Positions 4,678-14,530 of a stretch of 27,502 nucleotides of DNA are shown piece by piece. A model generated the notes under the pieces. The model did not search any database. It saw only the letters and a list, made by a program, of their open reading frames with translations, and had not been told where the DNA came from. The position numbers and the translations under genes are program-made. Source of the DNA: an uncultured beta proteobacterium (GTDB lineage Bacteria > Pseudomonadota > Gammaproteobacteria > Burkholderiales > SG8-39); assembly GCA_902826155.1 (NCBI GenBank), contig CADEDU010000007.1, positions 44,368 through 71,869 of the forward strand. The letters are read 5' to 3'. Within the stretch, counting starts at the first letter, position 1. The number at the start of each line of letters is the position of its first letter.

Positions 4678-5730
4678 ATGTCTCGGTCGCATTTTCAGTC
4701 GCAGCATCGCTCGCCACACCACGGCCGCGTATCCGCGCTTGCTGCTGGCCCGCTCGCACGGCTCCGACACTGGGCAGCCGCCGCGCTCGGCGTGCTTGCG
4801 CTAGGCGTCACCTGCGCCGCATCGGGCCAGACGCCCCTGAACAAGGAACCGATCAAACCGCTGCCGACGCTCGAGTCGCTCAATCTCAATCCGGGCAAGA
4901 TCAGGTTGGGCGAAAAGTTGTTCAAGGACCCCCGGCTTTCCAAGGACAACACCATCTCGTGCTCTTCGTGCCATCTGCTCGATAAAGGCGGTGCCAATCC
5001 GAAGAAGTTCTCGATCGGGATCCGCGAGCAGACCGTGCCGGTCAACGAGCCGACGGTGTTCAATTCCGGCTTCAATTTCCGCCAGTACTGGAACGGTCGC
5101 GCCGCAACACTCGAGCAGCAGGTCGACATGGTGGTGCAGGGCGAACGCACGATGAACGGCTCCTGGCCCGACATCGTCGCCAAGCTCTCGGCGGACCCGC
5201 CTCTGGTCGAGGAATTCGCGGCGATATTCAAGGACGGCATCCAGCCCCACAACATCCGCAGCGCCATCGCCGAGTTCGAGCGCTCGCTCATCACCCCGTC
5301 ACGGTTCGATCGCTATCTGCGCGGCGAACGCGACGCGATCACGCCCGAGGAGCAACGCGGCTACCAGCTGTTCAAGAGCTACGGCTGCATCGCATGCCAT
5401 CAGGGCGTCAATGTCGGCGGCAACATGTACCAGAAGTTCGGCGTCATCGGCGACTACTTCACGGCCCGCGGCAATCCGGCTCCGGCCGACCTGGGCCGCT
5501 TCAACGCCACCAAGAAGGAGAGTGATCGCTACGTGTTCAAGGTCCCGTCGCTGCGCAACGTAGCGCTCACCGCGCCGTACTTCCATGATGGGTCGGCGCA
5601 GACGCTGGAGCAGGCGGTCGAGATCATGTTCCGTTACCAGCTCGGCAGGCCGGCCCCCGCGCAGGACCGTGCATCGATCGTGCGGTTTCTGCATGCACTC
5701 ACCGGCGAACGCATGGAGGGCCGGCAATGA
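4678..5730 (+). CDS. di-haem cytochrome c peroxidase family protein
   Basis: A 350-residue periplasmic peroxidase that would reduce hydrogen peroxide with electrons from cytochrome c or quinol. Two c-type haem sites are present, CSSCH at 95-99 and CIACH at 237-241, plus the family signature VPSLRNVALTAPYFHDGS at 289-306. The N-terminus has a positively charged region followed by a hydrophobic core at about residues 31-50, so export is Sec-type, giving a mature protein of usual size. The ATG at 4678 is supported by GGAGGT six bases upstream. The stop overlaps the start of the histidine kinase gene by four bases (ATGA), so the enzyme is co-translated with a two-component system. That suggests the kinase responds to a condition related to the peroxidase. 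MauG-like roles cannot be excluded. Confidence 0.92.
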   Translation: MSRSHFQSQHRSPHHGRVSALAAGPLARLRHWAAAALGVLALGVTCAASGQTPLNKEPIKPLPTLESLNLNPGKIRLGEKLFKDPRLSKDNTISCSSCHLLDKGGANPKKFSIGIREQTVPVNEPTVFNSGFNFRQYWNGRAATLEQQVDMVVQGERTMNGSWPDIVAKLSADPPLVEEFAAIFKDGIQPHNIRSAIAEFERSLITPSRFDRYLRGERDAITPEEQRGYQLFKSYGCIACHQGVNVGGNMYQKFGVIGDYFTARGNPAPADLGRFNATKKESDRYVFKVPSLRNVALTAPYFHDGSAQTLEQAVEIMFRYQLGRPAPAQDRASIVRFLHALTGERMEGRQ

Positions 5731-7553
5731 TCCGCCTCGGACGGGCGCTCGCGATCGCCGCGTTCGCCATGCTGCTGGCCGGGGTACTGGGCTGGCTGAT
5801 CGCCAAGACCAGCGCACTCGACACCGGCAGCCGCGCGCGCATCATCGAACAGTTGCGCGGGTTGAGCCAGCTCGATGCGAACTGGAGCCTGGCGCTGCTG
5901 CGCACCAAGGTGGATGTCGACAACAACTACGACGCCCTGAACGATGCCGCCGGCGCGACCGAGCGCGCCGTCGAGCCGCTGGCGGCGGATCTGCTCGATC
6001 TGAACGACAAGCTGCTCAAGCCGACCGTCGACGCGCTCGGTGCGGGCATCCGCGAGAAGCGTGAGCTCACCGAGTCGTTCAAGACCCAGAACTCGGTGCT
6101 CAAGAACTCGCTGCGGTTCTACTCCACGGCGATCACGCAGCTGCGTGATCGGATCGAAGCCGCCCGCGGCGCACGCGCGGTGCCGCCGGCGCGCAGCAAC
6201 GCGCTCGACGTGATCGCGACTGAGCTCCTGGCCACCACAATGGAGTTCAACCTGACCTCCGAGTCGGACGCCAGGTCCCGCATCGAGCAGCTCATCGGGC
6301 GCCTGCAAAGCGAGCGCGCCGGTGCATCAGCCGCTCTCGTCGAAACGATCGACGTGGTCGCCAGCCACACCGGTATCGTGGTGCGCCAGAAGGAACTCGA
6401 AGACGCCCTGTTCGATCGCGTCGCGGCGATTTCGACGACCCGCTCGATCGAGCAGTTGGGTACGCTGGTCGATGGCGAGTTCGCGCGGGCGCTCGCCGAG
6501 CGCGACCGTTGGCGCATCGCGCTGATCGGCTATGCCGCGCTCATGCTGGGCCTGCTGGCGTTCCTGGGTGTGCGGTTGTTGTTGAACTATCGCGCCCTGA
6601 ACAACGCCAACGCGGCGTTGACGGAATCGAACGAGCGGCTGGAACAGCGCGTTGCCGAACGCACCGAGGATCTGGAGCAAGCGCTCGCCGAACTCAAGGA
6701 ATCGCAGACCCAGTTGGTGCACACCGAGAAGATGGCGACGCTCGGACAACTGGTCGCGGGCATCGCGCACGAGATCAACACGCCGCTGGCCTACCTCAAG
6801 AGCGGGCTGCAGGTCGCGCAAGCACGGGTGCGCGACGTCGACAGTCTGGTCATCGAATCGGCGGCGCTTGCCGACCTGATGGCCAGTGACGAGGCCGGCG
6901 AGGAGACGCTCACCGAACAGTTCGGCAAAGTGAGCGAGATCGCGCAGGCATTCATCGAGGTCGGCGCGGTGGGTGAATTGCAGACCTTGCTCGATGACGG
7001 ACTGCACGGCATCGACCACATCAACGTGCTGGTGACCAATCTGCGCAATTTCAGCCGCATCGATCGGGCGCAGATCGCCGACTTCGACGTCAATGAGGGG
7101 CTCGAGAGCGCGCTGATCATCGCTCGCAACATCGTCAAGCACCGGCGCATCATCAAGATGTTCGGCGACCTTCCGCCGATCACCTGTGCCCCGTCGCAGA
7201 TCAATCAGGTTTTCTTGAATCTGATCACCAACGCGTGTCAGGCCACGCCGGAAACCGGTTCGCTCGCGCTGGTCACGCGCATGATCGACGGTGACAGGGT
7301 TCGGATCGACATCTTCGACAACGGCACCGGGATCGCCGACGACGTCAAGGCGAAGATCTTCGAGCCGTTCTTCACGACGAAGAAAGTCGGTGAAGGAACC
7401 GGGCTCGGGCTATCGATCGTCGAGCGGATCGTGCGCGACCATGGCGGCGAGATCATGCTGCATTCGAAGCTGGGAATCGGCGCCAAGTTCGCGGTCGTCC
7501 TGCCGCTGCGGGCCAGTACCCCGACCGGCGACGAACTTGCCATGGCCGCCTGA
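5727..7553 (+). CDS. membrane sensor histidine kinase with all-helical periplasmic domain
   Basis: A 608-residue hybrid-free sensor kinase. Transmembrane helices lie near residues 7-26 and 264-284 and enclose a roughly 235-residue, almost wholly helical periplasmic domain that resembles the DAHL-type sensor region (recognition by appearance only). After TM2 comes a coiled coil (about 290-335), then the H-box VAGIAHEINTPL with phospho-acceptor H348, the N-box QVFLNLITNACQA (494-506), DNGTGI (531-536), FEPFFTTK (545-552) and GEGTGLGLSI (555-564). All catalytic boxes are intact. An extended helical insert separates the H-box helix from its partner (about 365-430). It overlaps the peroxidase gene by four bases and is followed 20 bases later by the response regulator, its likely partner. 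The periplasmic ligand or redox signal is unknown. Confidence 0.93.
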   Translation: MIRLGRALAIAAFAMLLAGVLGWLIAKTSALDTGSRARIIEQLRGLSQLDANWSLALLRTKVDVDNNYDALNDAAGATERAVEPLAADLLDLNDKLLKPTVDALGAGIREKRELTESFKTQNSVLKNSLRFYSTAITQLRDRIEAARGARAVPPARSNALDVIATELLATTMEFNLTSESDARSRIEQLIGRLQSERAGASAALVETIDVVASHTGIVVRQKELEDALFDRVAAISTTRSIEQLGTLVDGEFARALAERDRWRIALIGYAALMLGLLAFLGVRLLLNYRALNNANAALTESNERLEQRVAERTEDLEQALAELKESQTQLVHTEKMATLGQLVAGIAHEINTPLAYLKSGLQVAQARVRDVDSLVIESAALADLMASDEAGEETLTEQFGKVSEIAQAFIEVGAVGELQTLLDDGLHGIDHINVLVTNLRNFSRIDRAQIADFDVNEGLESALIIARNIVKHRRIIKMFGDLPPITCAPSQINQVFLNLITNACQATPETGSLALVTRMIDGDRVRIDIFDNGTGIADDVKAKIFEPFFTTKKVGEGTGLGLSIVERIVRDHGGEIMLHSKLGIGAKFAVVLPLRASTPTGDELAMAA

Positions 7554-7573
7554 AGACAACCGGGATCGCATCG

Positions 7574-8845
7574 ATGGCACAACGGCTCGCTAGCGTTGTC
7601 GAACTGGCCAAGATCCGTCGCGCGCGTCGCGAGAATGCTGCCAGCGAGCGCCCGGCGAAGATCCTGTTCGTCGATGACGAGGAGCGCATCCTCAAGGCGA
7701 TGCGGGCGTTGTTTCGTCTGCACTACGACGTCGTGACCACCACCAGCGCCGCCGAGGCGCTCGCCATGCTGGGGCAAGAGCGCTTCACGCTGATCGTGTG
7801 CGACCAACGCATGCCCGAGATGCAAGGCATCGACGTGCTGCGCCGCGCGCGCGAGATCGCACCGACCACCGTTCGCATTCTGCTGACCGGATTCTCCGAC
7901 CTCGCCGCGATCGTCGGCTCGGTCAACGAGGGCGAGGTCTATCGCTATGTCTCCAAGCCTTGGGAGAACGAGGAACTCGAGGAGACGCTGGCCGATGCCG
8001 TAATGGTCGGCACCGAGCTGGCTCGCGTCGTACCGCCGCCGCTGCCCGCCCCGCCCCCATTGCCCGTCGCACCCTCTGCGACGCCGGCCGATCGGAGCGA
8101 ACCGCCACATCTGCCGGCGCCACCGGGTCGCAACGTCCAGCAAAGCGAGCAAGGAGCGGTCGCAATCCACTCCAACTCGATTGCCGACGCAGCCGTTCCC
8201 GGCACCAACCGCGGCGACGTCGAAATCGGCGCGGCACCGATCCGCGTCTCGCTCGATGACGAGGCAATCGCCGGGCGTCTGCTGGCCGCGATGGGCGCCA
8301 ACGGCGACGCTCAGCCCGTAGTCCGGCCCGATCTTCCGGCGGTGCTCGTCATCGAACATCAGCAGATGCTGGCACCGCAACTGGCCGGACTGGGATTGGA
8401 AATCGGGTCGCTCGTCTCGGCACGCAACGCGACCGAAGCGCTCGATCACATGCAACATCAGGCCTTCGCCCTCGTCATCGCGTCGATCGACGGTGCCGAC
8501 CGCGACAACATCGACTTCCTGCGACAACTCAAACTGGCCCACCCACACGTCCTGGCGCTCGTGGCGACCGAGATGGGCGATTCCGACACCGTGATCGGGC
8601 TGGTCAACGCGGTGCGGATCTATCGGGTCATCCTCAAGCCGATCCGCGACGGACTGCTCTCGCAGTTCATGCGATCGGCACTCGCACAGGCGAAGCTCTA
8701 TTCGAGCGAGCCCGGTTGGGTCGAGACGCAGCGCGCAACGACAAAGACGCTCGCGCCGAGCGTCCATCCCGAGCTGCGCGCGGTGATCACCGAGCGCCTG
8801 CGCTCCATTCGCAGCCACTTTCGGCGCGTCCGATCGCCCGCATAA
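7574..8845 (+). CDS. response regulator with receiver plus degenerate second receiver, no output domain
   Basis: A 423-residue soluble protein. The N-terminal receiver (about 28-146) is complete: acidic pair D34-D35, phospho-acceptor D77 in CDQRMPEM, T105 and K128 in SKPW. A proline-rich linker (about 152-185) and a short unstructured stretch lead to a second receiver-like domain (about 255-376). There the acidic pair is EH (261-262) and the phospho-acceptor position is serine (S304), while the lysine is kept (K355 in ILKPI). So the second domain is probably a pseudo-receiver. The last 45 residues are basic. No helix-turn-helix, GGDEF, EAL or HD-GYP domain is present, although receivers with the SKPW motif are often joined to HD-GYP. 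It probably acts by protein-protein contact downstream of the adjacent kinase. Confidence 0.88.
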   Translation: MAQRLASVVELAKIRRARRENAASERPAKILFVDDEERILKAMRALFRLHYDVVTTTSAAEALAMLGQERFTLIVCDQRMPEMQGIDVLRRAREIAPTTVRILLTGFSDLAAIVGSVNEGEVYRYVSKPWENEELEETLADAVMVGTELARVVPPPLPAPPPLPVAPSATPADRSEPPHLPAPPGRNVQQSEQGAVAIHSNSIADAAVPGTNRGDVEIGAAPIRVSLDDEAIAGRLLAAMGANGDAQPVVRPDLPAVLVIEHQQMLAPQLAGLGLEIGSLVSARNATEALDHMQHQAFALVIASIDGADRDNIDFLRQLKLAHPHVLALVATEMGDSDTVIGLVNAVRIYRVILKPIRDGLLSQFMRSALAQAKLYSSEPGWVETQRATTKTLAPSVHPELRAVITERLRSIRSHFRRVRSPA

Positions 8846-9010
8846 GTCGACCGCAAAAAGTCGGGGCGCGCACAGCGCCGGCGCGAGGTTCCTGCTTCAT
8901 CCGCCGAACGGCCGGTTCCCGAATTGTCAGGGCGCGGGTTACTCTTCCGCACAACTCCGTCCCCTCCCTCCGCCGCGCGAAAGCGTGTCGCCCTCCCGAG
9001 GAGTCCTGCC
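8846..9010. other. gap between response regulator and CHAT gene
   Basis: This 165-base gap has GC-rich short inverted repeats around 8870-8886 but no T-tract, so no convincing terminator. GAGGAG at 8998-9003 is a good ribosome binding site seven bases before the GTG at 9011 and decides the start of the next gene. Whether the CHAT gene has its own promoter is not visible. Confidence 0.45.
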
Positions 9011-12000
9011 GTGGCTCAAGCCCGCAAACGTTCCACGCCCACTGACATCCTGATTCCCGGACGTCGTATCGAGGCGGCTTCCGCCCAACCCGCCGGCGGC
9101 GCGGCATTCAAGCTCACCAGCACGGCCGAGTTCGTCTTCGATCGCGCACGTGCCGCCGGTGAAGCCCCCGAGCGGGTGGCGATCGGCGACGACGAGCTGG
9201 TGGTCCTGGAGCTGGAGAACGGCATCCGCATCTGGACCTCGGGCAAGCACGCGCGCGAGGACTACGGCGCCAGGCCCGCTGCCGGCCGCGGCGCCGACGG
9301 CGCTGAATTCGAGCTGATCACGACCTTGCCGATCGATTCACCGTCGCGCGGCGTGGTGAGCTGGGCGCTCAAGGCGCTGCGCATCTTCAAAGTCGATCCG
9401 GTGGATGTCGCCGCCAGCGCGAGCGCGGCCGTCATCGCCGACAAGATCGAGGCGCAACTCATCGGCAAGCCGGGGCTGTATCGATGCAAGCCGCCGGAGG
9501 CTCATCGCTCGGCCGATCGTGCGGCCAAGGAGCCGATCGTCGGCGGCGACCCGATCATCCCGCCGCAGACGATTCCCGCCGTACCCGATCGCAAGGCGTC
9601 GCTGGTGTTCGTCCATGGCACTGCGTCGAGCTCCACCGGCAGCTTCGGCGGCCTGTGGGCCGAGGCCAATCGCGCCGAAACCGCGAAGCTGTTCGAACAC
9701 TACGAAGGCCGCATCTACGGATTCGAGCACCGCACGCTTTCGCTCAGCCCGATCGACAACGCGCTCCAGCTCGCGCAAAGCCTGCCCAACGGCGCCACCG
9801 TGCACCTGGTCTCGCATTCGCGCGGTGGCCTGGTGGCCGAGCTGCTGTGCCGGGGCAACATCGCGCGCGGCGCCAAACCGTTCGGTCCGGCGGACTTCGC
9901 GGTATTCGAGCGCGCCGCCGGCGAAGCCGAAGGAGCGGCCAAGCAGGCGCTGCTCGCCCAGCGCGACACACTGAAAAAACTGAGCGACCTGCTCGAAGCC
10001 AAGCAGATCAAGGTCGAGCGCTTCGTGCGCGTGGGGTGCCCGGCACGCGGTACCACGCTCGCATCGGGACGGTTCGACCGGTGGCTGTCGATCGCGCTCA
10101 ACCTGGTCGACCGGCTGGCCGATGCGGTGCCCGGCGTGGGCGACATGACCGACGTGCTCACCGATCTGGTGGCGGCGGTCGTGAAGAAGCGCCTCGACCC
10201 ATCCGAACTCCCTGGCCTGCACGCGCAGACGCCGGTATCGCCGCTGGTGCGCATGCTCAATCGGCCCGAGGTGATGACCGGCGCCGATCTCGCGGTGATC
10301 GCGGGCGAAGTCAAGGCGGGCGGCATTCTCGACAACCTCGCCGCGCTCGCCGCGAACTGGTTCTTCGGCCAGGAGAACGATCTGGTCGTCGACACCCGAT
10401 CGATGGATGGTGGGGCCGATCGCGCCACCGCGTGGCGCGCGCTCGACGACTCCGAGCAGGTCAATCACCTGCGCTACTTCACCAATCCGCGCACGGTGAA
10501 GCGGCTCAGCGCCGGGCTGATCGGCAACGACAGCGCGCGACGCGAGGCGTTCCAGCCGCTCGATGTTCAGCCCGGAACCATGCCCTCGCGCGGGGTCACC
10601 ACGGCACGGCGCGCACCGACGCCGAATGCGCCGGTGGTGTTCGTGCTGCCTGGCGTCATGGGCAGCCGGCTCGACGTCAACGGGCAGTGCGTATGGCTCG
10701 ACAAGTTGAAGATGGCCGGCGGTGCGATCGCCGAGCTGGCGCTCGACAAGAAAGTGAAGCCCGCCGCGCTGCTGGCCGAGTACTACCAGCCGTGGGCCGA
10801 TGCGATCGCCAATTACGGCGAGGCGGTGCTGTTCCCGTACGACTGGCGCCAGTCGGTTCAGGACAACGCCGATGAGCTCGCGCGGCAGGTGAGCGGCGTG
10901 CTCGACCGGGTCGGTACGCAGCGTGCCGTCCAGTTTGCGGCCCATTCGATGGGCGGGTTGGTCGTGCGCACGATGATCGCGCGCCATCCCGAGCTGTGGC
11001 GCTCGATCACCCAGCACGACGATGCTCGCCTCGTCATGTTAGGCACGCCCAACCAAGGCTCGCACGCGATGGCGGCGCTGCTGCTGGGCCGCGACACGCT
11101 GATCCAGCTGCTCGCGATCGCCGATTTCTCGCACTCGCTGAACGACATCCTCGGCATAATCAAGCGCTTTCCGGGGGTGCTGGAGCTGCTGCCGCACAAG
11201 TCCGACGACTTCGACTACTTCAGCGAAGCGGGATGGAAAGCACTCGAGGTGGCAACCGGGTTCCAGTCGAAGGGCGCGCCCGACAAGGCCGATCTGCAGC
11301 GAGCCGCGCGCATTCGCGACGTGCTGGCCTCGAGCCCGATCGATCCGCGGCGGATGTACTACATCGCCGGCTGCGGCGAACCCACCGTCGAGCGCGTCGA
11401 GAAGAACGGCGATATGATCGAACTGGTCAACACGCTCGAGGGCGATGGCAGCGTGCTGTGGCGCACCGGCATTCCCGAGGAGCTGCGCGAGACCAACACC
11501 TGGTATGCCGAAGTGAGTCACGGCGATCTCACCGGCGATGCGACCAGCGTTGGTGCGTGCGTCGAGATCCTGCGCAGCGGCACCACGAATCTGCTCGCCA
11601 AGCGCGCACCGAGCGTGCGGGCCGCGCGGGAGAAACTGCGCTACGAACGCGAACCGATCCGGGCATTTCCGACCACGCGCGACGTGCTCGATGCCGCACT
11701 GGGCAAGCGCCGCTCGCGCCCGGCCGCGCGGCGTGCCGCGGCGGTCACCAAGGTGAAGGTCACCGTGCGCCATGGTGATCTGCGCAACGCGAGCTACCCG
11801 CTGTTCGTCGGGCACTACTTCGGCGATCCGATCGTCAGTGCCGAGGCGGTAATCGACCGGCAGCTGGATGGCCGCCTGCTCCAGCGTCACGCGCTGGGTC
11901 TGTATCCCGGACGCGCAGGCGAAACCGCGCTGTTCCCCAATCCGATCGTCGACCCGGAAGGCCCGGAGCCGTTTCCCGGCGCGGTCGTGCTCGGGCTGGG

Positions 12001-14530
12001 TCAGGTGGGCGAACTCGGCGGCGGCTCGCTTTCGCAAACATTGCGGCGCGGCGTGCTCGAGCTGGCCAGTGCCGTCAGCGAAGGACGGTTCGCCCAGAGC
12101 CGGCTCGATGGCGACGGCGTCGGCCTCAGTACGCTCGCAATCGGTACCGGCACCGGCGGCATCGGCGTGCAGGATTCGATCAACGCGATCCTGAAAGCGA
12201 TCGTGGACGCCAACGACACGATCCTTGCCCAACGCCAACGGGGCGAGCTGCGCCTGATTCGCGAACTCGAGATCATCGAGTTGTACGAGGATCGTGCGCA
12301 CGAATTCTTTCACCAGGTGCGGGCGCTGCAGCAGCAAGCGGATTACGCGGAGTCGATCGAACTGGTACCGGTGATCTCGCAGACCGACGGGTCGCTGCGA
12401 CGGGTGCGCTTCGGCGAGGATCGCGGCTGGTGGCGGCGCATCCAGATCACCGAGGAGTCGCGTGGGAGCGGCGGCGAGGCCGACAAGGGCATGCGCTTCA
12501 AGCTGCTTACCGACACGGCGCGATCGGAGGTGTACGTCGCTTCCGGTCAACGCAAGGCGGTGGATCGGCTGATCGACAGCGCCGTGCGCGCCACCACGCC
12601 CGACCTCTCGAAGACGCTGTTCGAACTGCTGATCCCGAATGCGCTCAAGGACGCGGCACCGCGGAACGAGAGCCTGGTGTTGCTGCTGGACGAACAGACC
12701 GCCGCCTATCCGTGGGAGCTGCTGCAGGACGGCCAGCAACGCGACTCCAAGCCGATGGTCACCGAGGCGCCGATGATTCGCCAGTTCTCGCTCGATGTGG
12801 GGGCGTTCCGCGCCAACCCGCGGCTGGCGACGAGCAACCGCGCGCTGGTGATCGGCGACACCGACACGGCCAGCATGCGCGACACGTTCGCCGAGCTCGC
12901 CGGCGCGCAAGCCGAAGCCAGACTGGTCGCCGAGAAGCTCGCGGCTGCCGGCTTCGATGCGCCGGCCCACCTGAAGGTCGGCGCGCTCGACGCGCTGCAG
13001 CTGCTGTTCTCCGGGGACTATCGCGTCGTGCACTTCGCCGCGCACGGCGTGCATCAGTTCAGGCCGGCCGCGAGCGAAGAGCCGGTGACCGGCATGGTGC
13101 TGGGCGATGGCCTGTACCTGACTCCCGCGCAGATCGAGCAGATGCGCGTGGTGCCCGAGCTGGTATTCCTCAATTGCTGCTATCTCGGCCTGGTCGCCGG
13201 CGAACGCGGCTCGATGAGCCGGCTGGCGGCAAACCTCGCGACCCAGTTCATCCGCAACGGTGCCAAGTGCGTCGTGGCGGCGGGCTGGTCGATCCATGAC
13301 GACGGCGCGAAACTGTTCGCCGGCACGTTCTACGAGATGCTGCTCGCCGGCCAGCCGTTCGCTCAGGCGGTGTTCCGCGCGCGCCAGCAGACGTTCAAGG
13401 CGCTTCCCGGTGTGAACACCTGGGGGGCGTACCAGTGTTACGGCGATCCGGACTATCGGCTGCGCAAAGACAGCCTCAGCAATGCAGTGCGCACAGCGCC
13501 CACGTTCGCTTCGCCTTCCGAGTTGCGGGCACGACTCGAAACGCTGGAGGCGCGGGCCGCCGATGATGGCACGGGCAGGTCGAGCGAGCTGTTGGACGAG
13601 CTGGCGCTTCTGCGCAAGGCTGCACCGGAAGACTGGATGAAGCGCGATGGCACGCTGTGCGAAGCGTTCGGGCTCGCCTACGGCGCGCTGGAGAATTTCG
13701 ACGCCGCCACCGAATGCTTCGAGCTGGCGCTACTTGCCAAGCGGCGTCCGCCCTCGATCGGCGCACTCGAACAGCTCATCAATTTCCAGGCGCGTCAGCT
13801 GGCACGCACCGCCATGCACTCGCCGCGCGGCGACCGTGGCGGAAACGCCGCGGCACGAAGCGAAACCGCAACGCGCAACGCGGCAAGAAGCAAGGCCACG
13901 AAGCAGCTTCTTGGGTTGATCGAGCAGGTCGAAAGCCTGGTCGCGATCTACCCGACCGCGGAGCGCCGCAGCATTCTCGGCAGCGCCCATCGGCGGCTGG
14001 CCATCGTTGCTGCCGCCGAGGCCAACGCAACGGGAGTCAAAACGGCGCTGGATCGATCGATCGAACAATACCGATTGGCCAACGAACTCGATCCGGATCC
14101 CTATCCGGCTTCGCAGGTGACCTTGAGCGAGTTGCTGCGGGATTGGACCGCGCGCGACGCGGTGCGTGCGCACCGTGCCAGCGTCCAGGGGCTGCACGAG
14201 CAGGTGCGCAAGCATGCCGATGCCTCGAATTCATTCTGGTCACGCGTGTACGCCGCCGATTGGTCATTGCTGGCGGCCCTGCAGTCGATCGCCGCGAGCG
14301 ACGCCCGCCGCGCTGATCTCAACGCCGAGATCGCCAACGTGGTCGGCGACTACCAGGCGGCACTCAAGCGCGGCGCCAATCGACGCCAGCGACGCTCACT
14401 GGGCGAGACCTTCGATTTCGTGAAAGTGATCCTGCAGCATCAGCGCGGCCGCACCCGCGATGCCGGCCGCCAGCGCTCGATCGACGCCGCACTCGGCTTC
14501 ATCGACGCGGTGAAGGCCGGAGTCGGGTAA
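9011..14530 (+). CDS. giant dual alpha/beta-hydrolase - CHAT protease fusion protein
   Basis: An 1839-residue cytoplasmic-looking protein (no signal peptide or membrane segment). The start is GTG 9011, preceded by GAGGAG; residues are numbered from it. Domains in order: N-terminal region (1-190); hydrolase 1 (about 195-490) with oxyanion VHG 201-203, nucleophile S270 in SHSRGG, acid D457 in NDLVVD and H486; hydrolase 2 of LCAT/PGAP1 type (about 540-850) with LPGVMGSRL 546-554, nucleophile S646 in AHSMGG, D812 and H838 in SHGDL; a glycine-rich alpha/beta domain (about 912-1110) that recalls macro/M17 N-terminal folds; a CHAT caspase-like protease (about 1170-1485) with H1345 in HFAAHG and C1390 in FLNCC; and a helical, TPR-like tail (1495-1839). 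CHAT proteins are known as proteases in bacterial immune and death systems. The substrate and role of this one are unknown. No partner gene of a known CHAT system lies beside it. Confidence 0.85.
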   Translation: MAQARKRSTPTDILIPGRRIEAASAQPAGGAAFKLTSTAEFVFDRARAAGEAPERVAIGDDELVVLELENGIRIWTSGKHAREDYGARPAAGRGADGAEFELITTLPIDSPSRGVVSWALKALRIFKVDPVDVAASASAAVIADKIEAQLIGKPGLYRCKPPEAHRSADRAAKEPIVGGDPIIPPQTIPAVPDRKASLVFVHGTASSSTGSFGGLWAEANRAETAKLFEHYEGRIYGFEHRTLSLSPIDNALQLAQSLPNGATVHLVSHSRGGLVAELLCRGNIARGAKPFGPADFAVFERAAGEAEGAAKQALLAQRDTLKKLSDLLEAKQIKVERFVRVGCPARGTTLASGRFDRWLSIALNLVDRLADAVPGVGDMTDVLTDLVAAVVKKRLDPSELPGLHAQTPVSPLVRMLNRPEVMTGADLAVIAGEVKAGGILDNLAALAANWFFGQENDLVVDTRSMDGGADRATAWRALDDSEQVNHLRYFTNPRTVKRLSAGLIGNDSARREAFQPLDVQPGTMPSRGVTTARRAPTPNAPVVFVLPGVMGSRLDVNGQCVWLDKLKMAGGAIAELALDKKVKPAALLAEYYQPWADAIANYGEAVLFPYDWRQSVQDNADELARQVSGVLDRVGTQRAVQFAAHSMGGLVVRTMIARHPELWRSITQHDDARLVMLGTPNQGSHAMAALLLGRDTLIQLLAIADFSHSLNDILGIIKRFPGVLELLPHKSDDFDYFSEAGWKALEVATGFQSKGAPDKADLQRAARIRDVLASSPIDPRRMYYIAGCGEPTVERVEKNGDMIELVNTLEGDGSVLWRTGIPEELRETNTWYAEVSHGDLTGDATSVGACVEILRSGTTNLLAKRAPSVRAAREKLRYEREPIRAFPTTRDVLDAALGKRRSRPAARRAAAVTKVKVTVRHGDLRNASYPLFVGHYFGDPIVSAEAVIDRQLDGRLLQRHALGLYPGRAGETALFPNPIVDPEGPEPFPGAVVLGLGQVGELGGGSLSQTLRRGVLELASAVSEGRFAQSRLDGDGVGLSTLAIGTGTGGIGVQDSINAILKAIVDANDTILAQRQRGELRLIRELEIIELYEDRAHEFFHQVRALQQQADYAESIELVPVISQTDGSLRRVRFGEDRGWWRRIQITEESRGSGGEADKGMRFKLLTDTARSEVYVASGQRKAVDRLIDSAVRATTPDLSKTLFELLIPNALKDAAPRNESLVLLLDEQTAAYPWELLQDGQQRDSKPMVTEAPMIRQFSLDVGAFRANPRLATSNRALVIGDTDTASMRDTFAELAGAQAEARLVAEKLAAAGFDAPAHLKVGALDALQLLFSGDYRVVHFAAHGVHQFRPAASEEPVTGMVLGDGLYLTPAQIEQMRVVPELVFLNCCYLGLVAGERGSMSRLAANLATQFIRNGAKCVVAAGWSIHDDGAKLFAGTFYEMLLAGQPFAQAVFRARQQTFKALPGVNTWGAYQCYGDPDYRLRKDSLSNAVRTAPTFASPSELRARLETLEARAADDGTGRSSELLDELALLRKAAPEDWMKRDGTLCEAFGLAYGALENFDAATECFELALLAKRRPPSIGALEQLINFQARQLARTAMHSPRGDRGGNAAARSETATRNAARSKATKQLLGLIEQVESLVAIYPTAERRSILGSAHRRLAIVAAAEANATGVKTALDRSIEQYRLANELDPDPYPASQVTLSELLRDWTARDAVRAHRASVQGLHEQVRKHADASNSFWSRVYAADWSLLAALQSIAASDARRADLNAEIANVVGDYQAALKRGANRRQRRSLGETFDFVKVILQHQRGRTRDAGRQRSIDAALGFIDAVKAGVG

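What the first reader, a model, noticed from the sequence alone, without database searches (positions are those of the whole stretch)
9011..14530. One chain with two complete lipase/esterase-type hydrolases and a CHAT caspase-like protease
The protein carries two independent alpha/beta-hydrolase triads (S270-D457-H486 and S646-D812-H838), a macro/M17-like domain, a CHAT protease with an H1345/C1390 dyad and a helical tail. CHAT proteases in bacteria often act as regulated death or immunity executors. Tethering to two lipid- or ester-cleaving domains suggests a self-contained system in which proteolysis could free or activate hydrolases. No gasdermin, CRISPR or STAND partner is encoded nearby, so a stand-alone mechanism is a real possibility.
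Basis: partly seen in the sequence, partly recalled or inferred. Interest (0 to 1): 0.78.

Follow-up and report, generated by a model that had tools for sequence, protein, structure and literature searches.

The report
Caspase-like protease fused to two lipases
This bacterial gene makes one large protein that joins two lipase-like enzymes to a caspase-like protease and a sensor-like tail; relatives in other bacteria often sit beside caspase, TIR and cell-wall-cutting genes, so it may be an undescribed cell-death or defence executor.

Summary
The CHAT dyad is intact in 312 of 312 domains, the triads in 310 of 316 and 243 of 251. Relatives are patchy: 3 of 397 other genomes sampled from a phylum, 28 of 120 from one family. 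In relatives a metacaspase gene lies just upstream in 27 of 80 loci and an M15-type peptidase gene just downstream in 21 of 80; TIR domains occur as neighbours or fused. The window's own clade lacks these partners. Best reading: a CHAT-controlled two-lipase executor of a conflict or cell-death system. Folds, conservation and context are shown; signal, cleavage of the lipases, lipid substrate and defence are inferred. My ten paper searches found no description of this architecture, but the key TPR-S paper is not held.

The parts
9011..14530 (+). whole gene, GTG start, 1839 aa; GAGGAG ribosome-binding-like site at 8998-9003
9011..9580 (+). variable N-terminal domain (res. 1-190), no named family
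   Evidence: no Pfam hit; mean identity of relatives 0.30; fold barely tested
9593..10570 (+). first alpha/beta-hydrolase, DUF7379 (res. 195-520); S270 at 9818-9820, D457 at 10379-10381, H486 at 10466-10468
   Evidence: Pfam 130.1 bits, cut-off 33; triad intact in 310 of 316; weak lipase profile matches
10613..11635 (+). second alpha/beta-hydrolase, LCAT/lysosomal-PLA2-like (res. 535-875); S646 at 10946-10948, D812 at 11444-11446, H837 at 11519-11521
11744..12355 (+). macro / M17-N-terminal-like domain (res. 912-1115)
12356..13456 (+). CHAT caspase-like protease with its N-terminal part (res. 1116-1482); H1345 at 13043-13045, C1390 at 13178-13180
13508..14527 (+). TPR-S sensor-like domain (res. 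1500-1839)
5727..8845 (+). context only: DAHL-type histidine kinase (5727-7553) and double-receiver response regulator (7574-8845) upstream; no link to the gene shown

Best explanation
A cytosolic executor of a bacterial conflict or regulated-cell-death system. The TPR-S tail and the macro domain hold the CHAT protease off until a signal arrives, most likely an ADP-ribose/NAD-type nucleotide or a protein partner. Active CHAT then cuts its own chain in the disordered linkers and/or a partner zymogen, such as the metacaspase encoded upstream in many relatives. This frees or unmasks the two lipase-like domains, which attack membrane lipids and stop or kill the cell. Shown: domains, folds, intact conserved active sites, patchy spread, immune-type neighbourhoods of many relatives. 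Inferred: the signal, what CHAT cuts, the lipid substrate, the death or defence outcome.
Against: No activity is shown. No conserved cleavage site was identified in the linkers. The window's locus has no caspase, TIR or other defence partner in the ORFs scanned, and many relatives have ordinary neighbours (e.g. S-adenosylmethionine synthetase, urate oxidase, nitroreductase, arginyl-tRNA synthetase). Most of the metacaspase association is one clade, so it is few independent events. The distal control included both strands and probably antisense ORFs, unlike the proximal sets. 7 of 251 second hydrolases lost the serine. NAD-type sensing rests on a recalled paper and on fold.
Confidence: 0.45

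Rival explanations
1. Protease-cascade initiator: CHAT mainly activates another protease (metacaspase, clostripain, a second CHAT), and the two hydrolases are regulators, for example deacylating proteins or sensing lipids, rather than the killing activity.
For: Metacaspase next door in 27 of 80 loci; clostripain in that slot in L017; a TIR-CHAT protein plus a metacaspase in L088. SAVED-CHAT is described as acting by a cascade of proteolytic activity (PMC11229360, passage).
Against: The window's clade has no such partner, yet both triads are conserved there as well. The second hydrolase resembles phospholipases rather than protein thioesterases.
Confidence: 0.25
2. Effector or cargo of an export or contractile injection system, acting on other cells.
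Against: The four loci are one related group (62-82% identical). I saw no tube gene in the other 76 loci with that probe, and no export signal was noticed (not tested by a predictor). A 200-kDa chain with TPR-S and CHAT looks like a cytosolic sensor.
Confidence: 0.1
3. A lipid- or envelope-metabolism enzyme with regulatory domains, no role in conflict.
For: In the window the gene lies between a two-component pair and a CoA-transferase gene; its GC3 (0.838) is like that of seven neighbours (0.80-0.90), so it is not a visibly fresh import.
Against: Patchy: 3 of 397 other phylum genomes, 28 of 120 family genomes; on plasmids, once beside a type I restriction system; immune-type neighbours in many relatives.
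Confidence: 0.1

Closest known systems
Craspase TPR-CHAT protease (Csx29, type III-E CRISPR)
   Different: Csx29 is run by the gRAMP/Cas7-11 RNA-guided complex and has no lipase or macro domain; no Cas family in the window ORFs scanned.
SAVED-CHAT (CBASS/type III CRISPR)
   Same: CHAT protease gated by a nucleotide-sensing part, next to further proteases (PMC11229360, passages); dyad motifs align.
   Different: No SAVED domain here; the sensor parts are TPR-S and macro; lipases are on the same chain.
Protease-activated nucleases and caspase-nuclease (canu) systems
   Same: A caspase- or trypsin-family protease unmasks a partner hydrolase in phage defence (PMC12799240, abstract and section 8).
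   Different: The payload there is a nuclease on a separate chain; here two lipase-like domains are on the protease chain, with no cleavage shown.
Caspase / alpha-beta-hydrolase pairs of VMAP ternary systems
   Same: A caspase domain there always has a neighbouring alpha/beta-hydrolase gene (PMC7159879, passages).
   Different: Separate genes with MoxR/vWA partners; whether that hydrolase is DUF7379 was not tested.
Lysosomal phospholipase A2 / LCAT / Tle4
   Different: Those are separate enzymes; this one sits inside a sensor-protease chain and has no known substrate.
TPR-S proteins and the ASK1 central regulatory region
   Same: Pfam TPR-S over cut-off and ASK1 fold.
   Different: The proposed NAD-derived ligand is recalled from Burroughs and Aravind 2020 (not held) and is untested here; ASK1 carries a kinase, not CHAT and lipases.
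Type IV Thoeris (TIR + caspase-like protease)
   Same: TIR and caspase-family proteases together in relatives; the Thoeris mechanism is recalled, seen only as a reference-list entry.
   Different: The window has no TIR gene in the ORFs scanned; lipases, macro and TPR-S were not compared with the Thoeris protease (paper not held).

Membership tests
CHAT protease (PF12770) | profile match over the curated cut-off | tested here: met
   120.8 bits, cut-off 24
CHAT protease (PF12770) | His-Cys dyad and caspase/separase fold | tested here: met
CHAT protease (PF12770) | proteolytic activity | not testable with these tools
   needs an assay
LCAT/lysosomal PLA2-like lipase (PF02450) | profile, fold and Ser-Asp-His triad | tested here: met
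LCAT/lysosomal PLA2-like lipase (PF02450) | phospholipase or acyltransferase activity | not testable with these tools
   needs an assay
DUF7379 alpha/beta-hydrolase (PF24096) | profile match over cut-off | tested here: met
   130.1 bits, cut-off 33
DUF7379 alpha/beta-hydrolase (PF24096) | alpha/beta-hydrolase fold with triad in place | tested here: inconclusive
   triad conserved but fold rows were filled by the second hydrolase, D457 loop under pLDDT 50, solved-structure profile hits sub-threshold
TPR-S (PF20308) | profile match over cut-off and ASK1-like fold | tested here: met
TPR-S (PF20308) | binding of a NAD-derived ligand (recalled proposal) | not testable with these tools
   needs binding data; paper not held
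Craspase (type III-E CRISPR) | gRAMP/Cas7-11 partner gene nearby | tested here: not met
   no Cas family in the 15 window ORFs scanned, up to 21,698
SAVED-CHAT | SAVED domain on the CHAT chain | tested here: not met
   not among the 13 Pfam families listed at E <= 1
Type IV Thoeris | TIR gene paired with the caspase-like gene in the locus | tested here: not met
   no TIR in the 15 window ORFs scanned; present in some relatives
M17 leucyl aminopeptidase | metal-binding catalytic C-terminal domain | tested here: not met
   only the N-terminal macro-like fold is matched; no M17 catalytic family among the Pfam hits

The most novel reading that the evidence does not exclude
A self-contained bacterial caspase-activated phospholipase: one chain with sensor, caspase-family protease and two caged lipases, in which a nucleotide signal triggers self-cleavage and the freed lipases open the membrane. 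In many relatives it would also start a metacaspase cascade and let cytosolic wall peptidases (M15) reach the wall, an ordered lysis programme run from one operon.
Probability: 0.25. Interest if true: 0.82.

Novelty: new variant of a known kind. Interest (0 to 1): 0.6.

Why it matters
If right, it would add lipases to the effectors that caspase-family proteases switch in bacteria (nucleases in PMC12799240; gasdermins are recalled) and give a one-gene model, in the window's clade, for how an ASK1-like sensor fold may control a protease. It would tie metacaspases, TIR signalling and cell-wall hydrolases into one operon type, so that a bacterial caspase cascade becomes testable in named isolates such as Dechloromonas hankyongensis (L080) or in E. 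coli K-12.

Tried and rejected
Single-protein scan of genome contigs: 7 pattern stretches, no relative; the alignment scan then confirmed 538 of 555 stretches. Whole-protein PDB sequence search: one hit at E 0.28. N-terminal domain against macro profile: no relation. First against second hydrolase: only the nucleophile elbow came into register, not the Asp and His. The window's kinase and regulator were searched in L001-L080: no regulator match, and no kinase match just upstream on the same strand except a piece at the edge of L021. Phage records: no match. Viral contigs: 7 pattern stretches, no relative. Craspase, SAVED-CHAT, type IV Thoeris and M17 membership rejected (tests above).

Literature: ten searches gave no paper on this architecture among the listings I saw. 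Seven papers were opened: passages of PMC7159879, PMC8195603, PMC10907252, PMC11229360, PMC11417357 and PMC9729208; passages, abstract and section 8 of PMC12799240. Burroughs and Aravind 2020 and the type IV Thoeris paper are not held, so an earlier description of TPR-S/CHAT/hydrolase fusions there cannot be excluded.

Rows left out before counts: 54 of 69 listed same-strand upstream neighbours and 51 of 75 downstream ones were scanned; most left out were short. The distal control took 105 of 363 ORFs, both strands. 6 of 80 loci (L021, L044, L065, L069, L073, L079) gave no main ORF in my gene call but count in the tblastn tallies. Conservation counts use domains at least 85% complete. Antisense ORFs in GC-rich loci distorted the first neighbour count; one search replaced it. 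The tree is a single FastTree run rooted at midpoint.

Full report

Active sites. They are intact in 310 of 316, 243 of 251 and 312 of 312 domains (database proteins and locus ORFs pooled, redundancy not removed). Seven second hydrolases carry Gly, Cys or Ala in place of the Ser. S646 aligns with S165 of lysosomal PLA2, the residue mutated in 4x92. Mean identity to the window is 0.49 for CHAT, 0.46 for the first hydrolase, 0.40 for the second and for macro, 0.30 for the N-terminal domain and 0.26 for TPR-S.

Family. The protein search scored 7992 candidates and found 2136 relatives at E <= 0.001, 120 listed. An alignment scan of species genomes confirmed 538 of 555 stretches; the best 80 became L001-L080, mostly proteobacterial, with Desulfuromonadales-type, Nitrospirota, Acidobacteriota and a few other titles. 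Among the 359 proteins returned by three searches, 121 have the full order, 14 lack only the LCAT-like domain (1430-1541 aa), 31 start with the LCAT-like domain, and 55 have macro-CHAT-TPR-S with no hydrolase by my profiles. Some shorter ones will be contig-end fragments, but P0345 (one hydrolase) and P0326 (LCAT-like only) lie on contigs of 2.9 and 4.5 Mb. TIR_2 is precomputed on 14 of the 120 proteins listed; in the four I mapped, the other domains fill the chain up to about residue 1795, so the TIR must be C-terminal. The gene is patchy: 29 of 121 genomes of one family (E <= 1e-50) and 4 of 398 of the phylum (E <= 1e-100), the centre genome counted in both. 31 plasmid records match, 5 of them over at least 80%, one beside a type I restriction system, Fic genes and a recombinase.

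Neighbourhoods of relatives. A metacaspase gene lies just upstream on the same strand in 27 of 80 loci (71 have more than 1.2 kb upstream), an M15-type peptidase gene just downstream in 21 of 80 (73 have more than 1.2 kb). Pfam on 54 chosen upstream neighbours: Peptidase_C14 in 17, TPR-S in 5, clostripain 2, astacin 2, TIR_2 2. On 51 downstream neighbours: M15_3 in 8, TIR_2 in 7, AAA_16 in 4, nSTAND1 in 2. Both lists also hold ordinary genes (S-adenosylmethionine synthetase, urate oxidase, nitroreductase, arginyl-tRNA synthetase and others). PADLOC marks 17 caspases and 5 TIR effectors upstream (25 of 79 families shown), and TIR-type and phospholipase effectors downstream. Among 105 distal ORFs of the same loci the 25 of 40 families shown include no caspase or TIR, and the commonest has 3 members. 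The upstream slot holds clostripain in L017, astacin-like in L009 and L014, transglutaminase-like in L063, muramidase in L018, and an unrelated AAA/DUF4143 gene in L048. L088 has a TIR-CHAT gene, a metacaspase, the main gene and a TIR gene in a row; L090 has CHAT-DUF7379 in reverse order next to a TIR-CHAT gene. Caspase SGHG is present in 18 of 18 and DSCHS in 17 of 18 cluster members, and the M15 S-x-H-x-x-G-x-A-x-D motif in 9 of 9. The metacaspase association is mostly one large clade, with L024 and L019 elsewhere; the window groups with P0002 and P0003 in a part without it. In four related loci two contractile-tube genes lie 5-8 kb upstream.

The window itself. Upstream lie a DAHL histidine kinase, a double-receiver regulator, a MauG-like gene and a TRAP transporter gene; downstream a CoA-transferase, cupin- and dioxygenase-type genes. 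No defence partner appeared in the 15 ORFs scanned (gene included; ORFs beyond 21,698 not scanned). GC3 is like the neighbours'.

Mechanism. The enzymes are constant and the ends vary; protease and hydrolase recur together in two orders; TIR, caspase and patatin genes accompany many relatives; macro plus TPR-S suggest nucleotide sensing. The economical reading is a signal-gated protease that switches lipases and, where present, a metacaspase. Precedents: SAVED-CHAT cascades (PMC11229360, passages), Craspase (PMC9729208, passages), protease-activated nucleases (PMC12799240, abstract and section 8), caspase/alpha-beta-hydrolase pairs (PMC7159879, passages). That TPR-S reads NAD-derived signals is recalled from Burroughs and Aravind 2020, not held. 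Cleavage sites, ligand, lipid substrate and biological outcome are untested.

Verdict. Real, well conserved, widespread but patchy, and not described in the papers I could search. I place it as a new variant of a known theme, caspase-family proteases controlling bacterial effectors, set apart by two lipase-like payloads on the same chain.

Noticed in passing
L012, L025, L030, L041 (2.1-4.8 kb in each locus): Two T4-gp19-like contractile-tube genes, on the opposite strand, 5-8 kb upstream of the gene in 4 of 80 loci; these four relatives are 62-82% identical.
   Followed up: partly
L012:15959-17509; same family downstream, same strand in 11 of 80 loci: A ~517-aa protein with an apparent N-terminal membrane segment and no Pfam family follows the gene in 11 loci.
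   Followed up: partly
L023:6960-8936, L034:6793-8931, L096:218-2239: Upstream proteins that begin with an (F/I)V-x-(M/R)-PFG-type domain without a Pfam name and carry TPR-S where scanned (L023, L096).
   Followed up: partly
L040: Two copies of the gene in one locus, 1830 and 1874 aa.
   Followed up: no
L009, L033, L063, L064, P0024, P0262, P0353: Second hydrolase keeps Asp and His but has Gly, Cys or Ala at the serine, so it may be inactive there.
   Followed up: no
L089:2272-6294: DUF7379 hydrolase at the C-terminus of a 1340-aa protein whose first ~1000 residues match no Pfam family.
   Followed up: no
window 5727-8845: DAHL-type histidine kinase and double-receiver regulator upstream of the gene; not found beside L001-L080 relatives except a kinase piece at the edge of L021. 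A regulatory link is untested.
   Followed up: partly
L001, L039, L067 (cluster c18) and L018: Further neighbours look like peptidoglycan-acting enzymes: PG_binding_1 in 3 of 54 upstream neighbours and a muramidase in L018.
   Followed up: partly
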